A DNA stretch of 64,000 nt from Closterium sp. NIES-65 (lineage: Eukaryota > Streptophyta > Zygnematophyceae > Desmidiales > Closteriaceae). A program made the position numbers and the translations under genes. The DNA lies in the NCBI GenBank assembly GCA_948144175.1, contig CANXME010002049.1, positions 186,001 through 250,000 on the forward strand, written 5' to 3'. Shown here piece after piece: positions 1,309-30,700 of this stretch. Under the pieces are notes generated by a model. That model was not told where the DNA came from. It saw only the letters and a list, made by a program, of their open reading frames with translations, and did no database searches. Every line of letters starts with the position of its first letter. Position 1 is the first letter of the stretch.

Positions 1309-4300
1309 CTTTAACGCCACGAAGTGTGGATCCCTGTACCGCCCATTCTGGTCCACGTCTCCAAAACACGCTCCCTCCTCTTTCCTCTCCTCCTTCTGCC
1401 CCTCCTCCTGCCCGTTTTCCAGCCCCTCCTTCTGCCCATTTCCCTGCCCGTTTTTCCCTTTTCTCTGCCCCTCCTCTTGCTGCCCATCCCTGCGGCCTTT
1501 AAAGCTGCTGCTAGAAGGGCAGTCTAAGGGGGAGCGGTTGGGGAAGGAGCCGTTTTGGAGGTGCAGCGAGAGGGGGAAGTAGATCTGCTTGACAGGGCAG
1601 AAGGTGATTGAGCGGATGAGGGCGTCGACTGCAGGGAAGAACCCGTCATGGCTGGTGAGAGGGGGGAGTAGGCACAATATATGGGCGAAGAACAGATGAT
1701 TAATGGGGCGCTGGGGAAGTGGAGCTGTTTGACAGGGCAGAAGGTGATTGCGCGGACGAGGGCGTCGACTGCAGGGAAGAACCCGTCATGACTGTTGAGA
1801 GGGGGTGGGGGGAGATGAGTGCAGAAGGGGCGGAGAGGGAGGGAAGGAGACCATTAGGAGGTGCAGGGAGAGGGGAAGGTAGCGACGTGGAGAGGTGGGA
1901 GAGGGGGAAGTAGATCTGTTTGACAGGGCAGAAGGTGATTGAGCGGACGAGGGCGTCGACTGCAGGGAGGGAAGATCGTCGTGGCTGTTGAGTAAGAGGT
2001 GGGAAATGGGGGCAATGGGGGGACACAGAGGGTGACTGTTGAGAAGAAGGGAAACGGGAGCAAAAGGGGCGGAGAGGAAGGGAAAGAGACGTGGCAGAAT
2101 GTGATAGCACGGATGAGCGAGTCAACTGCTGGGAAGAACCCATCGTGGCTGGTGAGAGGGAGGGGGGAAGATGCGTGCACAAGGGGCGGAGAGGGAGGGG
2201 GGAAGATGCGTGCACAAGGGGCAGAGAGGGAGGGGGGAGGATGCGTGCACAAGGGGCGGAGAGGGAGGGGGGAAGATGCATGCACAAAGGGGGGAGAGGG
2301 AGGGAAGGAGACAATCAGGAGGTGCAGTGCAGGGAGAGGGGAAGGTAGAGACGTGGAGATGTGGGAGAGTGGGGAGTAGATCTGCTTGACAGGGCAGAAG
2401 GTGATTGAGCGGACGAGGGCGTCGACTGCAGGAAGGGAAGACCCCGGCCGCTATGTCTATGGCACCTAATAACCAGCAGGCACGCACCTGACAATGAGGA
2501 GGGTTTCGTTGATTCCTTGGACTTCAGACAGAGCATTTAACGCCACTCATAGGTACTCTTCCCGCCTGTGCACATACAGCACCACTATCACCACTGCCTG
2601 CTCCCCTAAGGCTCTCGGTTCTCAGCAGGCTTTTGAGACGTCTGAAAAGTCGGTTATCAGCAGGCTTTTGAGACGTCTGAAAAGTCGGTTATCAGCAGGC
2701 TTTTGAGACGTCTGAAAAGTCGGTTATCAGCAGGCTTTTGAGACGTCTGAAAAGTCGGTTATCAGCAGGCTTTTGAGACGTCTGAAAAGTCGGTTATCAG
2801 CAGGCTTTTGAGACGTCTGAAAAGTCGGTTATCAGCAGGCTTTTGAGACGTCTGAAAAGTCGGTTATCAGCAGGCTTTTGAGACGTCTGAAAAGTCGGTT
2901 ATCAGCAGGCTTTTGAGACGTCTGAAAAGTCGGTTATCAGCAGGCTTTTGAGACGTCTGAAAAGTCGGTTATCAGCAGGCTTTTGAGACGTCTGAAAAGT
3001 CGGTTATCAGCAGGCTTTTGAGACGTCTGAAAAGTCGGTTATCAGCAGGCTTTTGAGACGTCTGAAAAGTCGGTTATCAGCAGGCTTTTGAGACGTCTGA
3101 AAAGTCGGTTATCAGCAGGCTTTTGAGACGTCTGAAAAGTCGGTTATCAGCAGGCTTTTGAGACGTCTGAAAAGTCGGTTATCAGCAGGCACGCACCAAC
3201 AACAAGCCTGAGGTACCTGCTCACCAACAAGCACGCACCTGACAATGAGGAGGGTCTCGTTGATGCCTTGGACTTCAGACAGAGCATCTAAAGCACCTTC
3301 AGGTATTCGCGCCACTATCACCTGCTCCTAGCAGCACCCCTTGCATTGCACCTTGCAGTACCCTTCGCGCTCACACACACTCACAGCGCACCTGACAATG
3401 AGGAGCGTCTCATTAATGCCTTGGACTTTAGAGAGAGCATCCAGAGCCACTCTTGGGTACTCTTCCCGCCTGTGCCACTGTCACCCGCTACTCATGCTCC
3501 CATCTCTACGCTACCAGCACTTGACCGTCTGCAGGTTCGCACCTGATGATGAGGAGGGTCTCGTTGATGCCTTGGACTTTAGAGAGAGCATCCAGAACCA
3601 CTTTCAGGTACTCTGCCCTCCTGTGCCAGAGCCACTTTCAGGTACTCTGCCCTCCTGTGCCAGAGCCACTTTCAGGTACTCTGCCCTCCTGTGCCAGAGC
3701 CACTTTCAGGTACCCTGCCCTCCTGTGCCAGAGCCATTTTCAGGTACTCTGCCCTCCTGTGCCAGAGCCACTTTCAGGTACTCTGCCCTCTTGTGCCAGA
3801 GCCACTTTCAGGTACTCTGCCCTCCTGTGCCAGAGCCACTTTCAGGTACCCTGCCCTCCTGTGCCAGAGCCATTTTCAGGTACTCTGCCCTCCTGTGCCA
3901 GAGCCACTTTCAGGTACTCTGCCCTCTTGTGCCAGAGCCACTTTCAGGTACTCTGCCCTCCTGTGCCAGAGCCACTTTCAGGTACTCTGCCCTCCTGTGC
4001 CAGAGCCACTTTCAGGTACTCTGCCCTCCTGTGCCAGAGCCACTTTCAGGTACTCTGCCCTCCTGTGCCAGAGCCACTACCTGAAGGTAGTACATCTTTT
4101 GAGTCACCTCGATGTACTCAAAAGTCACCTCGAGAGCATCTAGAGCCACATTCAGGTGCTCCTCTCGCCTGTGCACATGCAGCACCACTACCACCTTCGA
4201 GACGTCTTAAAAATCACCAATACCACCTCCACTGACTGTCCCCCTGCAGCACGTGGTTACCAGCAGACACGCACCTGACGATGAGCAGGGTCTCATTGAT

Positions 4301-5970
4301 GCTTTGCACTTTAGAAAGAGCATCCAGAGCCACCTTCAGGTACTCTGCCCGCCTGTGCACATACAGCACCACTATCACCCCCACTGACTGCTCCTCTATG
4401 CCTGAGGTACCTGCTCACCAACAAGCACGCACCTGACAATGAGGAGGGTCTCGTTGATGCCTTGGACTTTAGAGAGAGCATTCAGAGCCACCTTCAGGTA
4501 CTCTGCCCGCTGGTGCACGTACAGCACCACGATCACCTGCTCCTCCTGCCCTATCCCTCCGCCTCCCCCGTGCCTTCCTCCTCCTTTTCTCTCCGCTTCC
4601 GCCCTTCCCGTTTGCGCTCTTCCCCCTCCCCCTGCCTCGGGAAATTTATCCGCATTCCGAACCGGGAGCTCGTTCCTTGCCAGGAGGTCCGGCCGAGCCA
4701 CGACGGGAGGCCACGGATTGCCGAGCCTCTTCCATTCAGCCACCGCCCGCTTCGCCTGCTGCTCCTTCCTCGCAACTTCCGCCAGCATCTTTAGCAGCAT
4801 ATCGTATTTTGAAATCTTCCTCACCAGCCTCCCTGCAACTATTCGAAGCTCCCCTCCCTCCCCCCCTCCCTTCCCTCCTTTCCCTCCTCCCTTCCCTCCT
4901 CCCTTTCCTCCTCCCTTCCCACCTCCACCCCCACCTCTCCTCCCTCCTTTCCCGCTCGCCCTTCTTTTCCCCTCAACCCCTCCGTCCTCACCCTTCTGCT
5001 GCTGCAATGCCAATGCCTGTGCGTCTCTCTCCTCTAGCTTTCGTAGCCACAGCGGCTTATGAGGAGACGAAGATTCATTCTCTCCTAACTCCTCCCCCTC
5101 CCCTCCTCCTTCCTCTTCTCCCCTTTCTCCCATCCCCTCACCTTCCTTCATTCCCCTTCCCCCTACCAGCCAGCCCCACCATCCCCTGCCTGCGCTTTTC
5201 CGCCCCTCCGCCGTTTCCCCCCCTCCGCCCCAACCTGTTCCGCTGGTCTCTCCCCTCAGCCCTGCTGTCACGCCTCCATTTGCCCCTCTGCTTACCTCTC
5301 CTCTCCCCCTTCCGCTCCCCCCTCCCATCCACCCTCCTCCTCTCCCCCTTCCGTTACTGACCACTAACGGAGCCGCTTTCAAGCCGGTTGACTGCTGCAG
5401 TCTGTTGAGTGACGTGATCGTGACGTCATCAAGGCCCAATGAGATGCGAGACGTGTGCATAACTGGTGGATCCAGACCGGTTACATACTCAGATGCTACT
5501 GTAACACTGCTGGTTACATCATCAGTTGCTCCTGTAACAGTGCTGCTTGCATTGTTGATCTTCGCTCGTGCAGGATTGCTGGTAACCAGCTTCTCTCTTT
5601 GGAACCCGCTGCGCGCCGAATCAGATACAGTGCGGCCGATTTTACTGTAGCCTGCTATAGCAAGAGAAGTATCGGCTACACTGGAGAAAGCAGTCGCATC
5701 TAGGGCAGCTAGAAAAGTTTTTCCTCGGGCAGATGAAACATCCGACGTGGAAGGGAGGAAAGTGGAGGATTGGTAGTGATGGAGGAAAAATATACCTGCT
5801 AAGAGCTGAAGGAGAAGGGCTACTGGGAGGAGAATCCGCTGAAATAGAGCCAACGTTGACTTAAACCGGAACGTTAACGGAATCCGTTTGGACTTCGTCG
5901 GTGGTTTGACGTTCGCACGTGCGTCAGCGACGAGAGATCCCCATGATTCTGAAAAAGTCATGGTCGCCAA
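1309..5970 (-). CDS. MGAT2: Alpha-1,6-mannosyl-glycoprotein 2-beta-N-acetylglucosaminyltransferase (GnT-II), partial
   Basis: GnT-II is a Golgi enzyme that adds GlcNAc to the alpha-1,6 mannose arm of N-glycans. Exon 1 is 4433-5970 (512 codons plus 2 nt, donor GTGCGT). It has a type II anchor near residues 38-62 (LLPVALLLQLLAGIFFL), a long Gly/Arg/Glu-rich stem, then the start of the catalytic fold: VIVVLYVHQRAEYLKVAL and INETLLIV. Exon 2 is 1309-1651 (acceptor CACCAG, donor GTACAT). The join restores S-HDG, followed by SITFCPVKQIYFPL and DQNGRYRDPHFVALK, matching the plant GnT-II order (from memory: LLIVSHDG, FCQVKQIF, GNPDQYGNHRSPKIVSLK). The following HHWWW region and catalytic C terminus are not found, so the gene continues beyond the window or is truncated by the gag element. 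The low-complexity stem is much longer than in land-plant enzymes. Extra exon copies lie between the exons (separate entries). Confidence 0.85.
1560..2460 (-). repeat. Array of five exon-2 copies of the MGAT2-like gene
   Basis: The 5' part of exon 2 (coding FFPAVDALIRSITFCPVKQIYFPL-like text) occurs five times. Right ends are near 1651, 1791, 1984, 2152 and 2455, on the minus strand. The first four keep an acceptor-like CAG immediately before the SHDG-like codons. Only the leftmost copy continues into the full exon with its donor. The copies differ, for example one reads VDSLIRAITFCH. Between copies 4 and 5, at about 2155-2310, there is a roughly 43-bp repeat (GGGGGGAAGATGCGTGCAC...) in four to five units. 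The extra copies are best read as duplicated pseudo-exons or alternative exons. Confidence 0.8.
2628..3185. repeat. 35-bp tandem repeat, about 16 copies, carrying a palindrome
   Basis: A 35-bp unit beginning TTTTGAGACGTCTGAAAAGT and ending GTTATCAGCAGG repeats almost perfectly about 16 times. Each unit holds the imperfect palindrome TTTTGAGACGTCTGAAAA. There are no variable spacers, so it is a minisatellite and not a CRISPR array. It lies in the intron between exons 1 and 2 of the MGAT2-like gene. Confidence 0.9.
3600..4080. repeat. 34-bp tandem repeat, about 14 copies, built from exon sequence
   Basis: The unit CAGGTACTCTGCCCTCCTGT plus GCCAGAGCCACTTT repeats with period 34. It matches part of the exon-1-end copy beside it (the minus-strand codons around EYLKVALDAL), so a piece of coding sequence has been amplified. 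Variant units (ACCCTGCC, CATTTTCAGG, CTCTTGTG) recur in a higher-order order, suggesting that blocks of several units were duplicated together. Confidence 0.85.
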
Positions 5971-6575
5971 TGTGGCGAATAAACACCTTCTGGTGTTACC
6001 ACATGCGCGAACGAAGATGCGACATTACAAGTTCAGTTGTGCGAATGAGGTAACACATCAGATCAACTGAGCCGCCGATCTGCCGAGGTGTTTCGCATCG
6101 AAGGGCAGGAGTAAGGCTCCACGAAACGAAGAACGAAGCCTATCGCAACAACAGGAACTCCTTACGACGAGGCTTGATCTACAACAGACATATGCTTCCA
6201 TAGCGATAACGAAGGGTACACATGTCTAACGAAGGAAGCTAGACAGGAGTACCTCCTATAATGGTTAGGCCTGAAGGGATGCTGCCCGAGCGCAGGAAGC
6301 GCAATGAAGAGTGGAAAGCACCTCCTCCGGTAATTATAAACTACGTCGATAGGAGCTCCATGATACAGCAAGTTCCGTTCCGACCCACTAGTCAAATTCG
6401 AATACCACTGTAGAGCGTCCATGGTCGGCCAACAGTCCCAAATGTGTCAGAAGTGTCAGAATTGTGTGGCGGGAAGAGAGTAATCAAGCACTTGTTCAGT
6501 TGAGGAAGATCCGGGATCTCGTTTGTGGCTTTCAGTTGAAGAAGAGTTGAACTCGTAAGAGCAGTCAAACTGTTG
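5971..6575. other. Upstream region of the MGAT2-like gene
   Basis: This 600-bp stretch lies between the MGAT2-like start codon and the Gypsy-1 element. It should hold the promoter of that minus-strand gene. I see only short frames without recognisable domains and no clear TATA box. Confidence 0.4.
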
Positions 6576-6580
6576 TCAAC

Positions 6581-6923
6581 TGTTACGAGTGCAATTGAGT
6601 GAACGAACGAGAATTGCACTATCGAAGCAAAAGTACAATGAGTGAAGGCATGAGCGAAGGATTATATAGCGAAACAATAGTGGTAACGGTAATGGACTGT
6701 GGTTGTCGCGCGTCGAGCCTGGGACTGAGGTTGGGAAAGTGTCGAAGCGTAGGCCCGGAGCGCGGGTTACCAGCCGAGCCGTGAGGTCGGGATGCGATGT
6801 GCGAAAAAGGGCGGGATGATGAATGATGCGATGGTCGCGAGTGGTAACGGTGCTGACTGAGGTGCTACAGTGACGTACGCGCTGGGCAGGGACGCGAAGT
6901 AAGGAAAAGGGAATTTCCTTACA
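6581..6923 (-). repeat. Gypsy-1 3' LTR
   Basis: 343 bp, starting TGTAAGGAAATTCCC and ending ACTCGTAACA in element orientation, with TG...CA ends. It contains a TATA-like CTATATAATCC. It appears identical to the other LTR. Confidence 0.93.
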
Positions 6924-6950
6924 CTACCCCCCTCCCCAAGGAGGCCCCTC

Positions 6951-8729
6951 TTACGAGAGCGCATGGACGTCGCGGAAATTTCGGCTTCGCAGATACTCGG
7001 TGAAGACAGGGTGGTTCTCAATTTTATCCAGGGGGACCCAGTTGTCTTCTGTGGGCGTTCGGTCCTTCCAGCGAATTAGGAACTCGATCCTTCGGGCTCC
7101 CCGAGGGTCGCGGACTCGGTGGCTGAGGATTTTTTCGGGGGTGATGAGTGGTTCGGTTGGGGGACGTGTCATGCTGGCTGGGCGATTTCGTGGCAGTTGG
7201 CTCGTGGATGGGATGTAAGGGCGAAGTAGGCTGACGTGGAATGACGGGCTGACGTACCAGTCAGCAGGGAGGAGGAGGTGGGCGGTGACGGGTGTGATCA
7301 TGTGGCTGATGCGAAATGGCCCACAATATCGGGGGCGAAGTTTTGGAGTGATGGGCAGGCGAAGGTTCTGAGTGTCGAGTAAAACGAGGTCGTCGGGTTG
7401 ATAAGTAACGGGTCTGCGATGTCGATCGGCGTTGCGTTTAGCGATGATGTTTGATTTTTTTATTGCTTCTGCTGCCCTGGTCCGTGCTGCTTGCAGAATC
7501 TCGGCGAATTGTTGTGCTCGTGGGACGGGGTTGTCGGGATTCGGTGTCATGGGTACTGTTGGGTCCTGTCCGTAATTTAAATAAAACGGCGACTGTTGCG
7601 TCGTGGCTGATGGTGCGTTATTGTATGCGAACTCGATGAGTGGCAGCTGCTGTTCCCACGTATTCGGGTCGTCGCACGTGGCTCGAATCAGCTGCTCCAT
7701 GGTCTGATTTGTCCGTTCCGTCTGTCCGTCGGTTTCGGGGTGATAGGATGAACTGAACTGTAAGCGCGTGCCGAACTGCTGCCACAGGTTCCGCCAGAAG
7801 TTGCTGGTGAATTTCGTGTCCCTGTCGCTGATGATCGACGCGGGTATCCCGTGCAGTCGTACGACGGTGGAGATGAATAGTCGGGCGGTTTCTTCGGCTG
7901 TGATGGATTTCCTGCATGCTGCGAAATGAGCCATTTTCGTTAGTCGATCGACGACGACCAGGATCGCGTCATTCCCACTCGCCCCAGCTGGTAACCCCGT
8001 GACGAAATCCATCGTCACCTGCTGCCAAGCACGCTCTGGAGGCGGGATGGGTTGTAATTGCCCCGCTGGTCGCTTCCTGCTTGACTTCATGAGCTGGCAA
8101 GTGGGACACGATGCCACGTGTCGTTGCACATCAGTCAACATTTCTGGCCAGTAGTAGTACCGCTGCAGCTGCTGCCGTGTTTTTTCTACCCCGAAATGTC
8201 CCGAGGTAACTCCGTCGTGTGCTTCCTGTAACAGTAGTTCCCGCAGTAACGTGTATCCCGGTATCCAGATGCGGTCGGTTCCAGTTTTTACGTAATAGAC
8301 TCCTTTTGCCGCTGCGAATTGCTGTGAGTTGCCTCCTGTGAAGAACGGGTCTGTTTGATATCCGTGGGTAAATAGGCCGGTAAGCAGTGGGCTGGTCTGG
8401 GCGAGTAGTATCGCGTGGATCTGGGCAGTGGGGCGGGTCAGTGCGTCGGCGATATTCGATGCTCCTTTTTTGTATGTGACCGTATAGTGAAAATTCGACT
8501 CGAGGAAATCGAGCCATCGAATCTGTCGTGGGTTGAGGTGGGGCTGTGCGCGGAGGTACTGTAGAGATCGGTGGTCTGTCCGTACTGTCACGTCTGCGCC
8601 AGTCAAGTAGCAGCGCCAAACTTTGAATGCATGCACGATCGCGAGCATTTCGCGGTCGTGTATCGGGTAATTTCGCTCAGGCGGATGTAGTTTTCGTGAT
8701 TCGTAGGCGATGGGTTGGAGGCCGTTGCC
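6951..8729 (-). CDS. Gypsy-1 pol, 3' part: RNase H end, integrase and chromodomain
   Basis: Continuous frame downstream of a stop at about 8742. It carries the end of RNase H (YPIHDREMLAIVHAFKVW, TVRTDHRSLQYL), an integrase zinc finger (HFGVEK...CPTCQLMK), the integrase core with its Asp-Asp-Glu positions (TMDFVTGLP, ISDRDTKFTSNFW, SSYHPETDGQTER), a GPFRI-type module, and a C-terminal chromodomain (ILSHRVRDPRGARRIEF, LIRWKDRTPTEDNWVP) that retains aromatic residues. In family terms the integrase inserts the cDNA and the chromodomain guides it to marked chromatin. The natural product would be one Pol polyprotein, so this segment alone is cut off by the upstream stop. Confidence 0.9.
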   Translation of the reverse strand, partial: GNGLQPIAYESRKLHPPERNYPIHDREMLAIVHAFKVWRCYLTGADVTVRTDHRSLQYLRAQPHLNPRQIRWLDFLESNFHYTVTYKKGASNIADALTRPTAQIHAILLAQTSPLLTGLFTHGYQTDPFFTGGNSQQFAAAKGVYYVKTGTDRIWIPGYTLLRELLLQEAHDGVTSGHFGVEKTRQQLQRYYYWPEMLTDVQRHVASCPTCQLMKSSRKRPAGQLQPIPPPERAWQQVTMDFVTGLPAGASGNDAILVVVDRLTKMAHFAACRKSITAEETARLFISTVVRLHGIPASIISDRDTKFTSNFWRNLWQQFGTRLQFSSSYHPETDGQTERTNQTMEQLIRATCDDPNTWEQQLPLIEFAYNNAPSATTQQSPFYLNYGQDPTVPMTPNPDNPVPRAQQFAEILQAARTRAAEAIKKSNIIAKRNADRHRRPVTYQPDDLVLLDTQNLRLPITPKLRPRYCGPFRISHMITPVTAHLLLPADWYVSPSFHVSLLRPYIPSTSQLPRNRPASMTRPPTEPLITPEKILSHRVRDPRGARRIEFLIRWKDRTPTEDNWVPLDKIENHPVFTEYLRSRNFRDVHALS

Positions 8730-8741
8730 GAAGTCCTGTAA

Positions 8742-9311
8742 CTATACAGCTCCGATGGCGATGTCACTTGCGTCGGTAACCACTTCGAAAGGGCGGTGGG
8801 GATCAGCGATGCGTAGGACGGGTGGTGAGCAGAGAACGTTTTTTAGGGCAGAGAAGGCAGCATGCTCTTTCTCCCCCCACGTAAAAGCGACCCCCTTACG
8901 CAGTAAATCAGTTAGTGGGGCTGTTAAACGTGCCATGTCGGGCACGAACCGTCGAACGTAATTAACAAACCCTAAAAAACTCTGCAGTTCCGTGATGTTC
9001 GTCAGGGGGCGCCACGCTTTTACTGTGTCCAGCTTCTTTGGTTCAATCTCAACCCCAGCCTCTGAAATGACGTGACCTAAAAACTCTAGCCTATCCTTAA
9101 AAAACTCGCACTTGGAGCCCTTGGTGAGCAGCCGATGTTCCTCTAAAACCTTAAAAACTGCTTCAAGATCTGCTAAGTGTTGCTGCTTATCCCGACTGTA
9201 AACGAGGATATCGTCGAGGTAAACGATCACGCATTTATCTAAAAGTGGCCTAAATGCCTCGTTCATGGTCATCTGAAAAGTCGCAGGCGCGTTCGTCAAC
9301 CCGAAGGGCAT
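8742..9311 (-). CDS. Gypsy-1 pol, middle part: reverse transcriptase core
   Basis: The frame MPFGLTNAPATFQMTMNEAF is followed by the catalytic YLDDILVYS, then LGHVISEAGVEIEPKK and RNase H start text FEVVTDASDIAIGAV. It ends at a TAG where related elements read VLMQD, and it is preceded by a TGA at about 9396 where SKIDLRSGYHQ is expected. The frame is continuous with the segments on both sides, so single base changes explain both breaks. This copy cannot make full-length Pol without readthrough. Confidence 0.9.
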   Translation of the reverse strand: MPFGLTNAPATFQMTMNEAFRPLLDKCVIVYLDDILVYSRDKQQHLADLEAVFKVLEEHRLLTKGSKCEFFKDRLEFLGHVISEAGVEIEPKKLDTVKAWRPLTNITELQSFLGFVNYVRRFVPDMARLTAPLTDLLRKGVAFTWGEKEHAAFSALKNVLCSPPVLRIADPHRPFEVVTDASDIAIGAV

Positions 9312-9395
9312 TACTGTATACTCGAATGACCCGTACCTAGTCCTAAATGCTGTTTTTGCACAGTCCGATGGTTCGACGCGAATCTGATGGTAACC

Positions 9396-10547
9396 TCACC
9401 GTAAATCTATTTTCGAAAAGACACGTGCTGTTCGCAGTTGGTCAATCATTTCGTCGGCGCGTGGGATGGGGTATCGCGATTTGACTGTTACTCGGTTAAG
9501 CGCTCGGTAGTCGATGCACATGCGAAAACCTCCGTCTTTTTTCGGTGTGAACAGTATGGGTGCGGCGAACGGTGACGAGCTCGGTCGAATAAACTGCTTC
9601 TCTAACAGGTAATCTAACTGCTTCCTTAACTCGTCGAGCTCGGGCTGTGTCAGTCGAAATTGCCGCTGTACTGTTGCCTGTGCCCCCGGTTCTAGCTCGA
9701 TCCTATGGTCGTGCGCTCGCTGAGGTGGCAGTCCCTGTGGTAAATCATCCGGAAATATCCCCGGGAACCGTTTCAGTAGTGCCTGTAATTCGGTCGGTAC
9801 GGCTGCTAGCAGTTTCTGTAAATCATTCTGCTGCTCGTCTTTTTCTACTACTGCGATATCCACTGCGTACACGTCAGCTCCAGCAGCGACAGCCCGTTTC
9901 ATCGCGATGGCGTTGACCTGGACTGTCGAAGATTCGGGTGGCCGCCAGCGAGGTAGGACGACCCAGTTACCGCTACTTCGCACTGTGCAGCTCCCCGTCG
10001 TCCAGTCGATCCGTGGGCTGTACCGTCGCAGCCAATCACGTCCCAGTAAAATGTCGTGCCCATCCAGCGTCGTTGCGAGCATTTCCTGTGTAAACCCGAA
10101 GTTTCCCCCGCAGCGGACTTTTACTCGCTCCACTTTTTCTCGTATGGCCAATGGCGTGCCGTCGACTAAGCGTGCATCTATCTCAGGTAAACATCGGGTA
10201 AGTGTTAACTGTAATTTCCGTGCGGTTGCAGTATTAACTAAGCTGTGACTTGCTCCTCCATCAATGAAGATTTTCACTGCTGCTCCCTGTATTTTCCCGT
10301 AGATCAGTACCGGGCAATCCGTCGCTGTACCCTCCTTATTCATCCGAGCCCGATCGATGGCGTGAATCGGTACTGTGACTCGGTGAGGGTCGGTGTGGTT
10401 GGGCGAGCAGGCAGTCTCGTCAGTAGTTGGCCCAACTTCTACTGACTGCTGGCGTTTCCCTGCCTCTGAGACTCCTTCCCCTGCTCTGCTCCTCGACGCC
10501 TCAGCTCCTCTGGACATTCGCTCTTGCGATGGCCCGGCCGGTTGCAA
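9396..10547 (-). CDS. Gypsy-1 pol, 5' part: protease and N-terminal reverse transcriptase
   Basis: The frame overlaps the end of gag by 109 nt and lies in the -1 frame relative to it. It holds an aspartic protease with active-site text [11 protein letters not shown] (Asp kept, but Gly where most elements have Ser or Thr) and the flap-side ILGRDW-like [12 protein letters not shown] text follows: [34 protein letters not shown] and [15 protein letters not shown]. It ends in a stop at SKIDLR. Entry is expected by frameshifting at 10454-10460, so the first residues of the open frame are probably not translated from an ATG. Confidence 0.9.
10419..10460 (-). promoter_or_regulatory. Predicted -1 ribosomal frameshift signal between gag and pol
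   Basis: In gag frame the text reads CAG-GGA-AAC, giving the slippery heptamer G GGA AAC at 10454-10460. A 7-nt spacer follows. Then comes a 28-nt hairpin (10419-10446): GTCAGT pairs with ACTGAC, and AGTTG with CAACT, with a 3-nt bulge and a short loop. The gag stop TAG lies inside the 5' arm. A -1 slip joins gag to the protease frame exactly, as ...[11 protein letters not shown]. All three parts match the known -1 frameshift design (X XXY YYZ, 5-9 nt spacer, stem-loop). Confidence 0.8.
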
Positions 10548-11617
10548 GCAAAGCAGCGCCCTCTAAATGGCGTGGCAGCTGCATTCGTTGCGACGGCATG
10601 TACAGTGGCGTGCTCGATCGGTCCCCGAGGGCGATGTCCGAAATAGGACCCCGGTCTCGGTCGGCGTAGGATATCGATTTTCTCGGCGAGCGCGAGGATT
10701 TCGTTGAAATTTGATAGCCCGCGTAGCATTATCTCGTGCGATATATCCGGCTTCAGACCTCCGACGTAACGGTCCACCCGCTCCGCCTCGTGCATGTAGC
10801 CGACCTGTTCGCAAAGTGCGAGAAAACCGCTGGTGTAGTCTTGAACCGACCCGAGCTGGCGCCAAGTGCGCAGTTTCTGACGCGCCGAAATCGAAGCCGC
10901 GATCGGCTCAAAACGCGCCCGAAGCCCTGCGCACCACGCATCCCACGTGCTGTATTGGGCTGTTTCGCAGAACGAACTCCAGGTGACAGCTGGACCCGAG
11001 GGCCCTTCCTCGTGCGACGGTGGCTCGTAGGCGCGTGGCGACGTCACGATGACTCGCCACCAGTCCATGGCGGGGCCCCTGAGTAGTGAAACCGCATACC
11101 GAATCTTGGCGGCGTCCGACTCGACGTAGTTGGCGTCGAAAAACACATTCATCGTGAAGACCCACGATTGAACTGTCGGGCCGCCGCGTTGGCTTGGGTC
11201 GAAGCAGGGCGGGCGTTGCGGCTTGAGTGGCATTGGGGCCATCATGGCGTTTTCACCACTTGTCGTCGCAAACTCCACGTGCCGACGGGCTTCTCGGGGC
11301 TCCCGTGGGCTTAGCGTGCTCCTGTTCCCTCCCATGCCGGGCATCGGTTGGGCTGCGCCGTCACTGGCTGCGCCTGAGCGCTGTCCCGTGCTGTTGTGTT
11401 GCGTTGGTGTGCCGGATGAAATGATAATCGGCTCCTCCGAATGTACAGAGACATTGGTTGGTGCGTGGGATGTTGTCGGAGCATTCACCGTTGACTGTTG
11501 ACGGGCGGAGTCACGTTCCGCCGTGAGCGTCGCGATTTCAAGCACCGAATCCTCCAATTGTCGCACGAGACGATCGAGTTGCTCCTGCGTCAACGTGGCG
11601 AGATTGAGGTCGGCCAT
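10439..11617 (-). CDS. Gypsy-1 Gag
   Basis: The open frame reaches 11683, but the better start is [20 protein letters not shown] at 11617, which begins a coiled-coil-like helix. The capsid region follows ([67 protein letters not shown]). Near the end is one CCHC zinc knuckle, [14 protein letters not shown]. This protein packages the element RNA. It ends at 10439 just after the slippery site. Confidence 0.9.
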
Positions 11618-11798
11618 GGCGGGGGTGTCGGGCAAGCTCAGCGAGAGCCTCGGTCGTGGCCGTGCGTGCTTGCGAGAGAGCACTACGAGCGGCGGTGCTG
11701 TGTCGCTGAGAGACGTCTACCCCCCCCAAAAATTGAGATAGTGGGAAGCGAAGGTGTGGATGCGGTCCGAGATGAGATCGTAGGCTCTGAATACCAAG

Positions 11799-12141
11799 TG
11801 TTACGAGTGCAATTGAGTGAACGAACGAGAATTGCACTATCGAAGCAAAAGTACAATGAGTGAAGGCATGAGCGAAGGATTATATAGCGAAACAATAGTG
11901 GTAACGGTAATGGACTGTGGTTGTCGCGCGTCGAGCCTGGGACTGAGGTTGGGAAAGTGTCGAAGCGTAGGCCCGGAGCGCGGGTTACCAGCCGAGCCGT
12001 GAGGTCGGGATGCGATGTGCGAAAAAGGGCGGGATGATGAATGATGCGATGGTCGCGAGTGGTAACGGTGCTGACTGAGGTGCTACAGTGACGTACGCGC
12101 TGGGCAGGGACGCGAAGTAAGGAAAAGGGAATTTCCTTACA
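11799..12141 (-). repeat. Gypsy-1 5' LTR
   Basis: Second 343-bp LTR, apparently identical to 6581-6923. The primer-binding site follows directly on the minus strand after a CT spacer (11783-11796). Confidence 0.93.
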
Positions 12142-12192
12142 TCAACCATTGGATGCGATTTCTTACACTAAAATCCTGCACTTCTAAAAACC

Positions 12193-12830: not shown

Positions 12831-12863
<33 letters not shown>

Positions 12864-13050: not shown

Positions 13051-13453
13051 AACTCACTGGGGATCAATCTCTACAGACAGAAGAAGGCGTGTGGAGGCAC
13101 AGAACATGCAAACATATCAACGGCTCAAATGCGTGATGTTTTGCCTGCCTTCCCTGTTATTCGATTCCGAAAATTCTCAAAAGCTGTTTGATCTATTGAA
13201 CCAGTTACTCCTCAGTAATACTCACTGGGTCCAGCTCAACAGATGGTAGGGGACTGGTGGCCACTCAGAACACAAGACGTGAACAGAACACTAATGTCCC
13301 AGCGGTAATAAGTCACAACCTGTTACCCCTGGTTGCACTCACTCTGGGTCCAGCTGAACAGACAGCAGAGGGCGAGTGGCCACACAGAACACAAGATGTG
13401 AACCAAACACAGCCGTTATAAGTCACAACCTGTTAAACCTCTGTATTACTCAC

Positions 13454-17558
<4,105 letters not shown>

Positions 17559-18425: not shown

Positions 18426-18429
18426 TCCC

Positions 18430-18730: not shown

Positions 18731-21700
18731 GCATATGGGTTACAGTTATTGCTGTTATGGACAGTGTTGCTGTTGCTTTCATGACTGTTGTTATTGTTTC
18801 TGTTCTTGTTGTGAGAGCTGTACAGAAGAAGTGAAACTGAGGCTTTCCACGTCAGCAGTGCCTTCATCCTCTTTAGAAGCTGCTCCTTTGCAGGGCTGTG
18901 GCTTCTACTTTCTGCACGGGTGTCAAAGGGAGGTGTGCAAGAAAAATGATTATTTTCCAAGAGTATAAGAGAATTCCCATTCGTACTGCTTGATTCAAGT
19001 GTGCATATGTTACATCTCACAATACCGAGCCCATCCCTTTCACACTGCACACATCCATCACCCACCTTGCAGCCGATCAATGAGCCTCAACTGCCTCTTC
19101 ACATGCCCGATGCCGAACTGCACCGCTTTCCACCACTCCCTCCTCTCCCACCACACCTGCAGCACCACTTTCCTGGCCCTCGCTTCCTTCGCTGCTGCTT
19201 CTTTTCTCGCTGCACCTTCCCCTCTCCTTCCCCCATCTCTCTCCCCTACTACAGCTGCCACTACTGCTGCCCCTCTCCCAGCCGCACCAGCAAAGGCTGA
19301 GAGCCACACAGCCTTTATGATCCCTGCCAGTCCCCACCAAGCAGCCAGTCCCCACCAAGCAGACAGTGCACTGCTGGTGGTGGCACCGAGGGCGTCCAGA
19401 TGCACTGCCAGCGTGCTCATGAGGAGAGAGGGGCCGCACGTGCCTGTATAGGGTGGAAGGGGAAGGGGTGTGAGTGAACGGGTGTGATTCTAACAGCCCC
19501 CATCAGGCAGGCGAGATCAAGGACTCTGGTGCTGCTGCTGGCAGCAAGCGCGTCCACATGCAGTGCTAGAATGGCCATGAGGAGAGAGACGGCCGCACGT
19601 GCCTGCACACAGGGGAATGGGACGGGGGCGGGGGTGAGAGAACGAATGTGAGCGTGGCAATGACTCCCTCCATCCCTCCCAGCCAGCCCCCCCCACCAGG
19701 CAAGCAGGCAGGGACTCTCTGGTGGTAGCAAGCGCGTTCAGATGCAGTGCTAGAATGGCCATGCGGAGAGACGGGCCACATGTGCCTGCACAGGGGAGTT
19801 GGATGGGTGTGGGAGGGGGATGGACTGAGAGGCATGGCATGGACACAGGAGGGCATCAGCCAAAGCACCTCCTCCTTCCACTTCCTCCCTCACTCCATCC
19901 CTCCCTCCCTCCTTTAATTTCTGTCACTCCCTCACTACCATTCTCCCACTCTCCTTCTCACTCCTCTTCTTATCACCTGCTAGACCCAGAGGCAGCACGC
20001 CTCGCATGGCATGGGAACAGGATGAAAACAACTGCTACAAAGCATCCGTCACTCCCACCCACTCCCACTTCCTCCCTCTCTTTCCCCCTCATCCACTTCT
20101 GCTTCTCACCTGCTAGCCCCAGAGACAGCGCGCCTCGCATGGCATGGGCACAGGAGGGCATCAGCCGAAGGACCTTACCCTCCCCCTCTCTCCTTCACTC
20201 CCTCCCTCGCTCCCTCCACTCCCTCCCTCACTCTCTCTCTCACTCCCTCCCTCACTCCCTCCCTCACTCCCTCCACCTGCTTCTCACCTTGTAGACCCAG
20301 AGACAGCACGCCTCGCATGGCATGGGCACAGGAGGGCATCAGCCGAAGGACCTCCAAATGACATTGCAGTAGAGTGAGGGAGTGAGTGAGAGAGTGAGTG
20401 AGGGAGTGAGAGGAGGATGGGGGTAGGGGGGATTCCTGAAGTTGGACGCACTGTAGCAGCAAGGCGCGGATCCTGAGAGCAGGGAGGGAAAGAGAGACAG
20501 TAAGAGGTAAGGGAAGACGCACATGGGAGGGAAAAAAGCAAATGAGCAGGGGAAGGGAGTGGGTGGAATGCACATGTGGAAGTTCGAGAGTCCTGAAGCT
20601 GCACGCACTCAAGCAGCAAGGCGCGGATCCGGAGAGCAGGGAGGAAGGGGGAAGATGGATAAGCGCACGGGAAGGAAAGCAGCAAGGCAGAGGGAAGGGA
20701 AAGAGGCATATGGGAAGAAAATTACATGACAGGGGGAGAGGACGGAGGAAGAAGAGTGAGAAATACTATACGACCCTTTTTTATTTTCATTTTTAATGTG
20801 GAAGGTAAAATAATACAAGTGGTCATTTAGGCATTTGAAATACTGAAAAAGGTTACTGAAGTTACCAACTTAGCCATAAGTTCTGCACTAAACCATGCCC
20901 TGAGTGCAGGACTAAGCCCTGAGTAGTACCTGAATGGATGGATGGAGCGTGCAACAGCAGGCAGGCACGAGCGGTGCAGAATGTCCAGAGCCACTCTCAC
21001 TCCTCTGGTGCCCTGGGCCGCAAGAATCTGTGTCAGAAAGAAAGGGACGGATACGAGAATCAGCAGCAAGGGAGTGGGGCGAGAGACAGTGAGATATCAG
21101 TGACAGGGCAGGCAGGCACGAGCGGTGAAGAATGTCAAGGGCCACTCCCACTCCTCTGGGGCCCTGGGCCACGAGAATCTGCAGAGAGGGAGTGAGAGAA
21201 GAGGGCGAGGAGACAGGAGGGGAGGGGAAAGATAAGTGAGATCAGGAGGATGCAGGAGAGGAGAAGGATGTCAAGAGCCGCTCTCACTCCTCTGTAACCC
21301 TGAGGTACACGAATCTGCAAGGCAGGAAATGGGGTTGGAAGGAAAAACGGAGAAGAAGGGATAAGTGCAAGGCAGGAAATGGGGTACAGTTGGGGCATAT
21401 CTGCTCTAGAGGCATGCAGGTGAACGAGGGGCACTAGAGCCGGGATGCAGAGGGGATCGGCTTGCAGTGTGTGCAGGAGGAAGGAGGCAGACTCTTGGAA
21501 GAGCTCGAGGGAGCAACGGGAGAGAGGAGGCAGGCGGAATGGGGTGGGGTGGAGGAGGAGAGGGATGGGGTTCAGGGAGAAGCTTACCTGAACTAGAGGC
21601 ACGAGGGATGGGATGCAAAGGGGATCGGCTTGCAGTGTGCGGATGCTGCTTCCCCGGAGACTCGACTCAAAACACGTCCTCCGAGAGCTTGAGGGAGGCG

Positions 21701-24700
21701 GAGTGCGGCGTGGTAGGGTAGGTGGGGAGAATGGGACATAGGAGGAGCTTACCTGCACTAGAGGCACTAAGGCTGGGATGCAGAGGGGGTCGGCTTGCAG
21801 TGTGTGCAGGAGGAAGGATGCTACCTTGCGAGAGAGCAAGGGAGCGGCGAGAGAGAGGAGGCAGGCGGAATGGGGTGGCGGGGGAGGTAGGAAGAAGCTC
21901 ACCTGCACTAGTGGCACTAAGGCCGGGATGCAGAGGGGGTCGGCTTGCAGTGTGCGCAGGAGGAAAGAAGCCGCTTCCCGGGATAGCTCGAGGGAGCGAC
22001 GGGAGAGAGGAGGCAGGCGGAATGGGGTGGAGGGGGAGGGAGGAGGTGGGAGGATGAGGGGGCAGATGAGCGGGTCAAGATCTGCTTTGTGGGGGTGGGG
22101 GGAAGTGGAGGGAAGGAGGGATGGAGAGGATAAGAGAAAAAGACGAGACGGTGTGAGAACGGAAAAAAATGAGGGAGAAAGAGAAGTGCAGGGGGATGGG
22201 GGAAAAGGGGAAAGGAAGGGGGGTGAGAGGTATCGAGGACGAGCAGATAGAAAACGGTGGTGGATGCAGAAAGATAGAAACGGTGACAGAGAGACGAATC
22301 ATAACTGTGTGAAGGGAGAAAATAGAGGGTGCAACAAAGCGAGGGAGTGGGTGGAAGGAGAGGGACGGACAGCAAGAGGGGAGGGACGGAAACAAGTGGG
22401 CCACACAAAACGGCAAGAGACATGACTCGAGAAAAAGTCCCGACACGCACCATATTTCCATGGCACAACGTATCTTGGAGCCTTTCCTCCCCCTCCTGCT
22501 TCTCTCCTTCCCCCTCCTCCTCCCATCCAGCCACTCTCCCCACTCCCCTCCATTGCCTCCCTCACTCCACCCATTCTTCCGCCCTCCCCTCCTCCCTTCT
22601 TCCACACTCTCCAAGCAAACGTCTCCTCCACCACCCTCCTTCCTCCTCTCCCCCCTCCTCCCCCATCCTCCTCCTCTTCTCCCTCCCCTTCCACCTCCTC
22701 CTCCCCCTCTTCCTCCTCCTCCTCCCCATCCTCCTCCCCATCCCCCCTGCCTCGCTCTCTCCCCCCTGCCATCACCTTCACCCCCTTCCCAAACGCCTTA
22801 CACAGGCTCGCAGCCAGAACCCCACTGCTTGCCTCCTCTCTGCTTGCTTCCCACGCTTCCTCTAAAGTACAGTCTAGCACGAAGGGAGGGTTGAGGGGCA
22901 GAGGCCTTGGAGGAGGATGGGGGGGAAGTTGGGGGGAAAAGGGTTCTCCACTAGAAAGATTCCAGAAACCAGCAGTGTATGCCTCTCCTTCCGATGCCAT
23001 TTCAGTGATATTCGAGCCTGTAACGGCGTAACAACCGCCGTCGTTATCGTCGTAACCACCAAAACGCATCAACTCCTGCTCGATCCACCCATCCCCCTCC
23101 TCCTCCTCTTCTTCTTCTTCGTCCTCCTCCCTTCCTCCTATTCCCCTAATGTACCCTCGCCTCTTGCCCCTTCCCCCTCCAAAACTACTCCCCTTTGACC
23201 CACCCTCCTGTTGCTCCCTCCTCCTCTTCCTCCTCTCCCATTGGTCCAGCAGCGCCAGCTCAGGAACCTCCACGTCAGCGCCACGATCACCATCACCATC
23301 ACAATCCCCATCACCCATATCCACATCCATATCCCCATGCATGCCCCCATCCGTCGCTCCATCCATCCGCCCATGATTGTCCCTCTCCCCATCATCCATT
23401 CCATCCATGTCTGAATTGAAGCCGTGGTGGGTATGCGAGGTGGAGGGCAGCTGCAGGAGGTCCTTCTGGGCGGCAGAGAGCCAGTGGGAGTACTGGATGA
23501 GCGCGCAGAAGAGGAGAGGAGAGGGGTCGGAGCGATAGGGGGGGAGGTTGACCACCCTGCACGGACAGGGGGAGTGGCAGGGAAGCAAGAACGGGAGAGC
23601 CAGTGGGAGTGCAGGTCATGATTCATGAGATCAAGTCCCTTAACTTAAGTACATCGGAAATGGACAAGAGATGGATGGGTGGCAAATCGGGGGCAATTCC
23701 AACCCCAATGAGACCGGGTGAAATCTCCAATTGGTGGGTTGGAGATTTCGGTTGATCACATTTGGGTGAGGTTGGTTGGGATGTTGGTAATACCCAACCC
23801 GCACAAACTGCAAACTACACTAAAAATGTTAAAGTTGAGGGAAGGGTTACCTCTAGGTTCACCACACCACACTGCACAGACAGAGGGAGTGGGGGACGGG
23901 GGAGGGGAGCACTATTAAAGGGAAGGACTGACCAGACCAGGGCCTCCGGTCCCATCCCAGCATAGCATCCATATTCCCGTAACACAGCGAGGCCCAGAGG
24001 TTGTAAGACACAGCGAGTACTATTCCCCTAGCACCAGACTGCTGCTCCCTCAGAATTATGTCTGAAGATCGAGAGGAAGGGACGGACTGACCAGACCAGG
24101 GCCTCCGGTCCCACCAGCATAGCATCCATATTCCCCTAACCAAATCCCGAATCATCTCCTAACACAGGGTTTTCGAGGATTTGTATAAGCACCTTGGAAA
24201 TGGAAGGGAGCTCACGTTTGCAGCGTTTGGAAGGCAGCGTCGAACTCGTTGGTCTCCATTTGGCACTTGGCTAGGTCTAGTAGCATCTGCCCCTTGCGCC
24301 TCTGATAGGGGGGGAACAAGGAGTATGGCACGTGGTAAGGAGAGAGGTTGAGGGAGGTTGAGAGAGGTTGATTGGAACGCAGCATCGAACTCGCTGGTCT
24401 CCATCTGGCACTTGGCGAGGTCCAGCAGCATCTGCTCCTTGCGCCTCTGATAAGAAAGGGAGGGGGGGGTTGTGGAGTGGTTGAGAGTGGTTTGAGGAAA
24501 AGGCAGCATCGAACTCGCTGGTCTCCATCTGGCACTTGGCTAGATCCAGCAGCATGTGCTCCTTGCGCATCTGATACGGGGAACATGGATGGGTTATGGA
24601 GTGGTTGAGTGAGGTTGAGGGAGGTTCGAAGGGAAGGCAGCATCGAACTCGCTGGTGCCCATGTGGCACTTGGCTGGATCTAGCAGCATCTGCCCCTTGC

Positions 24701-27700: not shown

Positions 27701-30700
27701 ACCACTCACGTCATACTCTTGCTTGAGAGCTATCGCTTGCATGAACACAAACCATCTATCCCTTCACAGAAGAAACCACAAATCTCCACCACTCACACTC
27801 TCTCCACTGCCCCTGCCCCGTGCACTCACGTCATCCTCTTGCTTGAGAGCTATCGCCCGCCTGCATGAACACCACCAGTCGCCTCCTCTCACTGCAGGAC
27901 CCGCGCACACCACGCCTACTCCCCCTTCACTCTGACACCATCCCACACACCACAGCCCTGCTCAGTGCTTCTTTCACTCACGTCATCCTCTTGCTTCAGA
28001 GCTATCGCCCGCCCGCATGAACACCACCAGTCGCCTCCTCTCCGAGCCGTGATCATCATAATAATACACTACCCATACGCACCAGCAGCCATATTCCCCC
28101 CATCACCACTCACATCGTCCTCTTGCTTGAGAGCTATCGCTCGCATGAACACCACCAGTCGCCTCCTCTCTGCCCTCCGCCGCTCACTGCTGCTGCTGCT
28201 GCTGCCACCACCACCACCAGCAGCAGCAGCACCACCACCAACGCTCCCACTGCCTCTGCTGCTGAAGCCCTTGCGCCACAGCTCTCGCAGCAGAACGAGC
28301 GCTTGCTGGGGGAGGGAATCAAAGAAAAGAGGAAGGCAGACAGGCAAAAGTATCAGGACTGCCCTCCCACATGCAGCACTGTCCCTGCAGCTGCTGAAGC
28401 CCTTGCGCCAGAACTATCGCAGCAGCACCAGTGCTGCCAGCACGCCTGCTATGTGCATGCATACTTCATACCAGAGTTTACTTTTGAGGCGCCTCAAAAG
28501 TCGTCTATGTGCATGCATACTTCATACCAGAGTTTACTTTTGAGGCGCCTCAAAAGTCGTCTATGTGCATGCATACTTCATACCAGTGTTTCCAGCTCAG
28601 GAGGCTTTTCGGAAGCGAAGGGTTTTTCAGATCTGCGTTTTTTTCACTTGATTTTTTCACTGTTGTTCCTTTGCTTAAGCGTCCAGTCAACCACTGCAGC
28701 CCTTCGAACATGATTCAAGGTGCATACTTCAAACCAGAGTTTCCAGCTCAGGATGGCTCCTCCTTACCTGGGATTCCAGCCATATCTGTTCATGTACAGC
28801 GCTCCGAGTCACCTCAGCATCCTTACCCGCATCCATCAGAGCCGCCAGCACGCCTGCCGCCTGCTGCACCTCCTGCCTTTCCCTCACCTGGTGCTAGTGA
28901 CCTGAACTCAAGCCTCTGGTTTGGGGCTTGGGACTCTGGTTTTCCCTTACCTGGGATTCCATCCAGCCAAATGGGTTCGTCAACAGCCCTCCTGGTCACC
29001 TCAGCATCCTTATCCGCATCCATCAACGCGGCCAGCACCCCTGCTGCCTGCTCCACGCCCTACCGTCCTGTGATCAATGCAAGGGGTTTCTCCTTACCTG
29101 AGACTCGAGCCATATTGGTTCATCCACAGCCCGTCTTGTGACTTCAGCGTCCTTATCCGCATCCATCAGAGCCGCCAGCACGCCTGCTGCCTGCTCCACC
29201 TCCCCTCGGAACATCATCCTCCTTAAAAGCCGCCTCAGCATCTGCCGGTGCACCGCTGGCAGACGAATGCAGCCGCCCCGGAAGCCCAGCGTGCGGGCGG
29301 CACTCCGGCCGCGCCGCCCGTCTGCGGTGAGGGCGGTGAGATCGTTGCCGTAATCCAAATGCCGCCACTCTTGATTGGATGTGAACCGGAAGGGCGGGAG
29401 AGTCGTGTTGGGTGCAGTTGATGCAGCTGCTGCTGCTGCTGCTGCTGCTGCATCAGCAGCAGCAGCAGGAGCGGAGCGAAGACGAGCAGAACCAGCACCA
29501 GAACCACCAGCAGCAGCACCAGAAGCATTACCAGAAGCTGTGGCGACTCCTCCTCTTTTTGGGGTTGCATTCTTCCTGCGATTCTGTTGCCCCTCTTTCT
29601 CTCCCTCCCCTTCCAGCTGCTGCAACTGCTGCCCCTTCTGCTGCTCCTCCTGCTGTTTCAAGGGACTGGGAGAAGGAGCGACAGTATCACCAACAGCAAC
29701 AGCAGCAGCACCAGCAGAAGAGGGACGGTCAGAGCGACGGGCGATCTTAGCCCCACCGCTCTTGCGTCTCCCCTCCGCTAGCCCATCACCATCACCACCA
29801 TCAACACCTGCAGCATCGCCTGCAACTCCTGAAGCAGAAGCAGCCTTTTTGGATGCTGAAGACTGGAACCGTCCGTCTCGTCCATGCGCCGTTCCCCCTC
29901 TTTTCTGCACCCTCTCTCCCCACGCCTGCTGCCCCGCAACAGTGCGCAGGGCGAGGAGGGTGCGAGAGTTCTGCATGTTGGAAACGGGGGGCTGGACTTT
30001 CTTCTTTCTCGGATCTGCACACACAAAGAGGACATGGGGAAGGAAAAAAGAAACGAATCGGTGGGGACAGTGAATCTTTACCCCTGAGCCTGATAACAGG
30101 TGAGTTTTTAGTCGACTCTGAAATCACCTCCCAAACCCCACAGTAGCAAGCCCTGGCTTGTGAACCTTGAACCCGAACCTGCAACCAGGGCCTCTAAACC
30201 CTGAACCTTGTAATCTGAGCCTGATCCCAGAACCTTGAACTTCGAAATTTGAACCTAATCCCAGAAACCCGGAACCCTGAACCTTCAAACAGGGGAATTT
30301 GCCCAGCAATTCGCTCGCCGTGCCACACCTTTCTGTGACGGAGGTGAATCCTTCTGCTGTTCCTCCACTCGCCCTCCTTCCACTCCCTCCTCCTCCTCCT
30401 CCTCCTCCTCCTCCTCCTCCTCCTCCTCCTCCTCCTCCTCCTCCTCCTCCTCCTCCTCCTCCTCCTCCTCCTCCTCCTCCTCCTCTTCCCCTTCCTTCTC
30501 CTCCCCCTTCTCCTCCCCCTTCTCCTCCTCCTCCTTCTCCTCATCATCTTCCTCCTCTTCATTATCCTCCTCCCCTTCCTCCTCCTCCTCTTCCTTCTCC
30601 TCCTCCTCTCCCTCCTCCTCCTCTCCCTCATCCCCGTCTCCCTCCTCCTCCTCTCCCTCCTCCCTCTCTCCCTCCTCCCCCTCTCCCTCCTCCTCCTCCT

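What the first reader, a model, noticed from the sequence alone, without database searches (positions are those of the whole stretch)
1309..29205. Every host gene in the left half carries serial arrays of copied exon pieces
In three unrelated neighbouring genes (MGAT2-like, SLD5, TAF1A-like) I find at least 13 separate arrays in which an exon, or one end of it with adjoining intron, is present 2-8 times in tandem at 70-170 bp spacing. Coding text is conserved better than expected for random intron, yet only one copy per array generally has both splice sites. Exon-1-end copies of MGAT2 keep donors, exon-3 copies of SLD5 keep acceptors, and one SLD5 exon has its two halves amplified separately. 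Inference: a genome-wide process repeatedly duplicates short segments centred on exon borders, possibly yielding mutually exclusive exon variants. I do not know this pattern from the literature.
Basis: partly seen in the sequence, partly recalled or inferred. Interest (0 to 1): 0.88.

Follow-up and report, generated by a model that had tools for sequence, protein, structure and literature searches.

The report
Introns filled with partial exon copies
In this large algal-type genome most exons sampled sit beside tandem copies of their own front or back ends, made by ordinary local duplication and unequal exchange, yet these apparently unusable copies have diverged as if they once coded for protein.

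Summary
Fifteen exons of the three window genes have partial copies nearby. MGAT2 and SLD5 are confirmed; the TAF1A label is not. It extends beyond the window: 12 of 14 sampled MCM and chaperonin loci carry local duplicates, and 48 of 70 reference exons in 17 loci have a copy of at least 45 bp. The arrays recur in two to four contigs, so a one-contig assembly error is excluded.

The geometry is strict: of 36 copies holding only the exon start, 35 lie upstream; of 39 holding only the end, 39 lie downstream; 1 of 116 keeps both exact splice sites. One array grew from one spare copy to four between near-identical loci, by exon–copy recombination. Concentration on exon borders is mild.

Unexplained: copies differ from the exon mainly at synonymous sites (N fraction 0.38; simulated dead copies 0.62–0.66). 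Yet copies now change at the intron rate, and for 10 of 11 copies tested no possible donor lies elsewhere in the genome. Mutually exclusive exons are not supported.

The parts
4435..4539 (-). MGAT2 exon 1, 3' end with donor (reference copy)
   Evidence: Pfam MGAT2 E 9e-26 for exon 1 end joined to exon 2 start
3241..4379 (-). array of MGAT2 exon-1-end copies (4277-4379, 4132-4196, 3549-3626, 3394-3475, 3241-3308); GT kept in the four that reach the end
3592..4078 (-). 34-bp x 14.3 minisatellite whose unit matches a piece of the exon-1 end
2490..2592 (-). distal MGAT2 exon-1-end copy, GT kept, one stop in the compared codons
1477..1650 (-). MGAT2 exon 2, 5' end (reference copy)
1713..2432 (-). 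upstream acceptor-side copies of MGAT2 exon 2 (1713-1790, 1859-1968, 2088-2147, 2338-2432)
16896..17018 (-). SLD5 exon 2 (reference)
   Evidence: Pfam Sld5 E 9e-9, PDB
16756..16818 (-). downstream copy of SLD5 exon 2 end, donor lost
16214..16297 (-). SLD5 exon 3, the copy with both splice sites (reference; sites read by eye)
16369..16686 (-). three upstream matches of SLD5 exon 3 (16369-16438 and 16510-16579 with acceptor by eye; 16655-16686 short), unit about 141 bp
16112..16154 (-). downstream donor-side match of SLD5 exon 3 (43 bp)
14789..14899 (-). SLD5 LPRRYQSILKQA exon (reference)
14350..14708 (-). downstream copies of that exon (14635-14708 with donor, 14350-14401)
15222..15490 (-). short upstream matches of that exon (under 45 bp each)
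13453..13533 (-). SLD5 PTPDLDTFVF exon (reference)
13600..13945 (-). three upstream acceptor-side copies of that exon
13227..13394 (-). two downstream donor-side copies of that exon
29098..29202 (-). third gene, exon end AAGVLAALMDADKDAEVTRRAVDEPIWLESQ with donor (reference)
28768..29056 (-). two downstream copies of that exon end (28962-29056: 15 synonymous, 0 nonsynonymous differences in 31 codons)
28111..28164 (-). third gene, RRLVVFMRAIALKQEDDV exon end (reference); four matches within 27590-28036
28258..28302 (-). third gene, ALVLLRELWRKGFSS piece (reference); copy 28390-28434
24215..24301 (-). third gene, exon QMLLDLAKCQMETNEFDAAF (reference); five upstream copies within 24372-25190 and one short match beyond
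21903..21998 (-). third gene, exon ASFLLRTLQADPLCIPALVPLVQ (reference); copies 21421-21514, 21588-21641, 21753-21837
21107..21178 (-). third gene, exon GVALDILHRSCLPA (reference); copies 20957-21027, 21252-21314
20289..20354 (-). third gene, exon EVLRLMPSCAHAMRG (reference); copy 20114-20175 and short matches 19981-20022, 19832-19871
20436..20477 (-). third gene, RIRALLLQCVQLQ piece (reference); short match 20593-20634
19543..19602 (-). third gene, exon SLLMAILALHVDALA (reference); copies 19727-19785, 19389-19443
5961..12170 (-). Gypsy-like LTR element used as control: no local duplicates (its kind is my reading of the sequence, not tested)

Best explanation
The arrays are the product of repeated short tandem duplication inside genes, kept going by unequal exchange. 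SHOWN: partial exon copies are common in the genes sampled, start-side copies lie upstream of the working exon and end-side copies downstream, and in one recent case new units are recombinants made inside the exon homology. INFERRED: a duplication that spans one exon edge is tolerated because the working exon keeps both of its splice sites, so selection leaves just these partial copies, while duplications inside an exon or of a whole exon are mostly removed. INFERRED: the copies are not used as exons today. LEAST CERTAIN: their codon-like divergence was accumulated while they were part of working exons, most simply in diverged homologues that exchanged exon pieces with this locus and have since been lost.
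For: Local duplicates in 12 of 14 sampled MCM/CCT loci and 3 of 3 window genes. Side rule 35 of 36 and 39 of 39 by segment ends, 34 of 36 and 47 of 49 by scored splice ends. C2359 has four spare copies where C841 has one, and the three extra units join the working exon's flank and start to the old copy's exon part and spacer. The same arrays recur in two to four contigs. Copies now change at 3.49 per kb against 2.46-2.74 in non-coding DNA and 0.68 in working exons (the copy figure includes clustered and unit-shifted differences). Nonsynonymous differences between homoeologs: 15 in 2391 copy codons against 1 in 2941 working codons. Four-fold mismatch copy versus exon 0.272, JC 0.338, in 89 copies, close to the within-strain paralogue Ks peak of about 0.35 in PMC10407611 (passage read), which also reports hybrid origin and recombination between genes of different origin for strain NIES-4550 (section 8 read).
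Against: No diverged donor found: (95 matches, 31 candidates scored), for 10 of 11 tested copies nothing outside their own array and its homoeologs is as close as the working exon; for the eleventh a paralogue with its own array is equally close (83%). Novel homoeolog differences in copies are 9 synonymous and 10 nonsynonymous, fewer nonsynonymous than the 75% expected of dead sequence, so weak present constraint is not excluded. Pairs of copies with the same break still have N fraction 0.37 (17 pairs; not every such pair shares spacer homology). Simulated turnover with role swapping cannot lower the N fraction below 0.62.
Confidence: 0.5

Rival explanations
1. The copies are used: partial exon copies replace the matching part of the exon in some mRNAs by a splicing mode not recognised here, and selection keeps them coding.
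For: Mismatch rate by codon position 0.0725, 0.0514, 0.2235; 0-fold/4-fold ratio 0.19 when matched for trinucleotide context; coding gaps 10.9 against 105 per 1000; AG kept exactly in 37 of 44 and GT in 41 of 57 copies that reach a scored end; novel homoeolog changes 9 synonymous, 10 nonsynonymous.
Against: 1 of 116 copies keeps both exact splice sites; shared AG|GT near the break in 6 of 46 and 17 of 46, and N fraction does not depend on it. Present substitution rate in copies is at the non-coding level.
Confidence: 0.2
2. A process aimed at exon borders duplicates them specifically.
For: 71 of 140 exon ends in duplicates against 57.1 (P 0.0055), exon bases 49.9% against 39.7%.
Against: Enrichment is small and expected in part because working exons change slowly and so keep old duplications recognisable; 74 of 206 duplicate pairs lack annotated coding; no common motif at the breaks in the part of the output that I saw (both cut; by eye).
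Confidence: 0.1
3. Recombination load: exchange with the exon makes copies live often enough that haplotypes with damaged copies are purged.
For: Exchange between copy and exon is seen.
Against: Exchange frequent enough to select would also erase synonymous divergence, which is 0.338 (argument, not computed); swapping alone fails in simulation.
Confidence: 0.08
4. Assembly error from repetitive or hybrid reads.
For: The genome is highly duplicated, and contigs C1942 and C2331 show homopolymer-type indels in copies and exons.
Against: The same arrays occur in two to four contigs; clean MCM pairs differ by 0.1-0.7%.
Confidence: 0.02
5. Intron gain by tandem duplication of an AG|GT-bearing exon piece.
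For: Some exons have AGGT near the break (MGAT2, third gene, one CCT).
Against: Not general: 6 of 46 upstream and 17 of 46 downstream partial copies; many copies carry intron flanks with acceptors or donors.
Confidence: 0.03

Closest known systems
Tandem exon duplication and mutually exclusive exons (search listing only; family features recalled)
   Same: Homologous exon sequence repeated in tandem inside a gene.
   Different: Here 20 of 116 copies cover the reference segment and 1 of 116 keeps both exact splice sites; 15 of 17 sampled loci are affected.
Intron gain by tandem genomic duplication (PMC4974935, PMC3443670; search listing only)
   Same: Local duplication that includes exon sequence and splice-like sites.
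   Different: No general AG|GT at the break; the copies lie inside existing introns.
Unequal crossing-over between repeated exons, as in Tetrahymena (PMC6564038, search listing only; the exon-array content is recalled)
   Same: Unequal exchange between repeated exon sequence.
   Different: Here the repeated unit is a truncated exon edge with intron and is probably not part of the protein.
[quoted passage not shown]
   Same: Strain NIES-65 assembly total 876 Mb against 874.08 Mb here; widespread gene duplication; hybridisation; within-strain Ks peak about 0.35.
   Different: The passages read mention no exon-edge arrays; the identity of this genome is inferred from size only.

Membership tests
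Mutually exclusive / tandem duplicated exons | complete duplicated exons with both splice sites | tested here: not met
   20 of 116 copies cover the whole reference segment, some of which are only exon pieces; 1 of 116 keeps exact AG and GT. Acceptors of 13 and donors of 4 of the 48 exons could not be scored
Mutually exclusive / tandem duplicated exons | alternative inclusion in mRNA | not testable with these tools
   no RNA data held
Mutually exclusive / tandem duplicated exons | purifying selection on all copies | tested here: inconclusive
   historical N fraction 0.38, but present rate in copies at the non-coding level
Intron gain by tandem duplication | AG|GT inside the duplicated exon piece at the junction | tested here: not met
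   6 of 46 and 17 of 46
Unequal crossing-over tandem array | copy number differs between close relatives and new units are recombinant | tested here: met
   C841 against C2359: one exon array clearly changed among the homoeolog pairs compared
Minisatellite | short homogeneous unit repeated many times | tested here: not met
   median identity 84%, median offset 223.5 bp after masking periods up to 60; one exon-derived 34-bp minisatellite does exist at 3592-4078
Introner elements | near-identical intron sequences at many unrelated loci | not tested
   the 11 copies matched only their own gene, its homoeologs, one paralogue and another chaperonin gene (82%)
Closterium psl complex NIES-65 | assembly size | tested here: met
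   874,075,685 bases against 876 Mb
Closterium psl complex NIES-65 | sequence identity to that strain | not testable with these tools
   no eukaryote reference held; a plastid-type trnL(UAA) with group I intron was recognised by eye

The most novel reading that the evidence does not exclude
Truncated exon copies in introns stay under protein-coding constraint because they are really used, by an unrecognised way of joining a copy to the rest of the exon at RNA or DNA level, so that most genes of this organism carry several interchangeable exon edges.
Probability: 0.15. Interest if true: 0.92.

Novelty: new variant of a known kind. Interest (0 to 1): 0.62.

Why it matters
A genome in which most sampled exons carry serial partial copies makes intron growth, tolerance of duplication across splice sites, and unequal exchange directly measurable. 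The codon-like divergence of copies that should be dead is a clear, testable puzzle: it records either exchange between diverged homologues or an unknown use of partial exons. It also warns that gene models and exon-by-exon homology searches in such genomes can be misled.

Tried and rejected
Intron-gain junctions: shared AG|GT at the exon-internal break in 6 of 46 and 17 of 46 copies, with no effect on N fraction. Identity gradient from the break: none in 56 copies. Coincidence of start-side and end-side breaks: 3 of 11 exons within 15 nt, random mean 3.02. Mutation spectrum: the trinucleotide-matched ratio stays at 0.19. Detection bias: simulated dead copies through the same search give N fraction 0.63-0.66. 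Falling N/S with rising S: reproduced by sampling under a constant ratio, so it separates nothing. Role swapping: simulation stays at 0.62-0.63. A dispersed palindrome as break hotspot: 2 of 116 breaks within 25 nt, random 4.7. A 112-bp homoeolog difference at C1919/C2069 is a short-unit repeat, not an exon unit (by eye).

Limits and dropped rows: three further MCM places (C1862, C1770, C2116) and four chaperonin groups were not fetched. Copies under 45 bp were left out from then on. Copies with gaps (25 of 116) were left out. One far match (CCT_C1626 at 1545) was dropped only. The C841 unit-shift differences were left out. Splice-end classes depend on scored sites, missing for 13 acceptors and 4 donors of 48 exons, so recounts by segment ends. 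Searches used wrong orientation for three MCM loci; one search replaces them. One search was a failed script. Outputs were cut, so statements by eye rest on what was shown.
Full report
WHAT WAS CHECKED. The window lies in G000:C1751:186001-250000 of an 874,075,685-base genome with 2400 contigs. The total is close to the 876 Mb given for Closterium peracerosum-strigosum-littorale strain NIES-65 (PMC10407611, passages read). A plastid-type trnL(UAA) with a group I intron is present (the tRNA was recognised by eye). The strain identity is an inference from size.

Self-alignment shows local direct repeats over most recognised exons of the three genes. They cover 29.5%, 61.3% and 32.6% of the MGAT2, SLD5 and third-gene regions, 0 of the Gypsy-like element and 2.3% of the right half. 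MGAT2 and SLD5 are confirmed; TAF1A is not (E 0.17). Ten random 6-kb regions gave 0-3.2% in eight, and 17.4% (L055) and 18.4% (L057) in two. Of the open frames tested, one of three from L057 has weak leucine-rich-repeat matches below or near the curated cut-offs, and neither of two from L055 has a match. So I cannot say whether those two regions are genes. Transposons may be too young to be a fair control for old intron DNA.

IT IS NOT CONFINED TO THE WINDOW. Exon-by-exon searches with MCM and chaperonin profiles gave loci mostly in near-identical pairs. I took one locus of each of seven MCM pairs and 7 of 11 chaperonin groups. 12 of 14 have local duplicates, and 49 of the 67 profile hits in the fetched stretches lie more than 20% inside one. 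With one reference exon per cluster in these 14 loci and the three window genes, 48 of 70 exons have at least one copy of 45 bp or more, and 35 have two or more. MCM locus C1466 and chaperonin locus C326 have none.

ANATOMY. By segment ends, 36 of 116 copies hold only the start of the reference segment (35 upstream of it), 39 only the end (39 downstream), 20 the whole segment and 21 only its interior. By scored splice ends the classes are 36 (34 upstream), 49 (47 downstream), 8 and 23. AG is kept exactly in 37 of 44 copies that reach a scored acceptor, GT in 41 of 57; one copy of 116 keeps both. This is what tandem duplication across one exon edge leaves when the working exon must stay whole. 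Exon ends lie in duplicates in 71 of 140 cases against 57.1 expected (P 0.0055), so the concentration on borders is mild. Homology stops sharply inside the exon; I saw no common motif at the breaks in the shown part.

HOW NEW UNITS ARISE. The third gene's region is present in four contigs at 99-100% identity with its arrays. Clean MCM pairs differ by 0.1-0.7%, while several pairs with length differences show more in the global alignment. Between C841 and C2359 one acceptor-side array differs: one spare copy plus exon against four plus exon. The three extra 146-bp units start with the working exon's own intron flank and exon start and end with the older copy's exon part and spacer. That is the product of misaligned exchange between a copy and the exon, inside exon homology. 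This is the one clear exon-array event seen.

THE PUZZLE. Differences between copies fall on codon positions 1, 2 and 3 at rates 0.0725, 0.0514 and 0.2235; gaps are 10.9 per 1000 aligned coding positions against 105 in non-coding. Copy against exon: 708 synonymous, 442 nonsynonymous, 11 stop codons in 3042 codons, N fraction 0.38. By gene it runs from 0.24 (MCM C21) to 0.58 (MCM C841), with MGAT2 0.50, SLD5 0.36 and the third gene 0.34. The 0-fold/4-fold ratio matched for trinucleotide context is 0.194. Simulation with a constrained exon and dead copies, run through the same detection, gives N fraction 0.63-0.66; a copy omega of 0.3 gives 0.41-0.45. So copies accumulated most of their divergence under coding constraint, in most genes but not all.

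IS THE CONSTRAINT STILL ACTING? Between homoeologs, working exons show 5 synonymous and 1 nonsynonymous difference in 2941 codons, copies 13 and 15 in 2391, and non-coding DNA 107 in 42197 bp. In a second count, copies change at 3.49 per kb, non-coding DNA at 2.46-2.74 and exons at 0.68. That favours copies being unprotected now. But after the unit-shifted stretch is left out, novel differences in copies are 9 synonymous and 10 nonsynonymous, and 2 and 3 more look like exchange between copies. Ten of nineteen is fewer nonsynonymous than neutrality predicts, and two contigs carry homopolymer-type indels; the sample does not settle it.

WHERE COULD THE CODING HISTORY COME FROM? Mean four-fold mismatch is 0.272, JC 0.338, with moderate spread (89 copies, dispersion 1.57). 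PMC10407611 reports a within-strain paralogue Ks peak near 0.35 and, for strain NIES-4550, hybrid origin with recombination between genes of different origin. Exchange with diverged homologues, later lost, would fit. Against it, for 10 of 11 tested copies nothing outside their own array and its homoeologs is as close as the working exon. One of these ten also matches another chaperonin gene at 82%, which is less close than its own exon (90%). For the eleventh (third gene) a paralogue with its own array at C1751:288216-288578, about 38 kb beyond the window end, is about as close (83%) as its own exon. Turnover with role swapping alone fails in simulation. Use of the copies at RNA level would explain the pattern directly, but nearly all copies lack a pair of intact splice sites and a shared AG|GT is found in a minority.

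VERDICT. A real array system of partial exon copies, common in the genes sampled, best explained as tandem duplication plus unequal exchange filtered by selection. No paper describing it was seen among the listings, which cover an open-access library only and show part of the hits. The mechanism of duplication is ordinary; the extent and the codon-like divergence of the copies are not, and the latter remains only partly explained.

Noticed in passing
window 14212-14229, 28482-28499, 28538-28555, 31168-31185; also several MCM/CCT introns: A dispersed short palindrome TTTTGAG-NNNN-CTCAAAA whose four central bases are usually themselves palindromic (ACGT, TCGA, GCGC, AATT). 29 matches in the window against 2 expected, 16 of them in one minisatellite; 59 against 7 in 186 kb scanned with a 16-base core, 5 of them in the ten random regions. 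Not at array breaks.
   Followed up: partly
window 27203-27552: A roughly 333-bp element with inner inverted repeats, found in 37 further places at 92% identity or more in a capped list, MITE-like by appearance.
   Followed up: no
window 3592-4078 and 2615-3190: A 34-bp x 14 minisatellite whose unit matches the MGAT2 exon-1 end, and a 35-bp x 16.5 minisatellite holding the palindrome, both within the same intron array.
   Followed up: partly
window 25235-26971: A 10-bp unit repeated about 174 times inside the third gene; its length differs between some of the four homoeologous contigs.
   Followed up: no
G000:C1751:288216-288578 and C2331:106325-106687: A diverged paralogue of the third gene with its own three matches in a row.
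   Followed up: no
G000 C75, C97, C411, C1848 and others: 28 group I intron hits of two types (only 28 candidates scored): one type lies in a plastid-type trnL(UAA) at C411, the other at C734 is flanked by a weak bacterial-type LSU rRNA match; several contigs carry hits in alternating orientation.
   Followed up: partly
window 47848-48121 and 48841-49113: Two direct repeats of about 273 bp, 98.9% identical, 993 bp apart in the right half.
   Followed up: no
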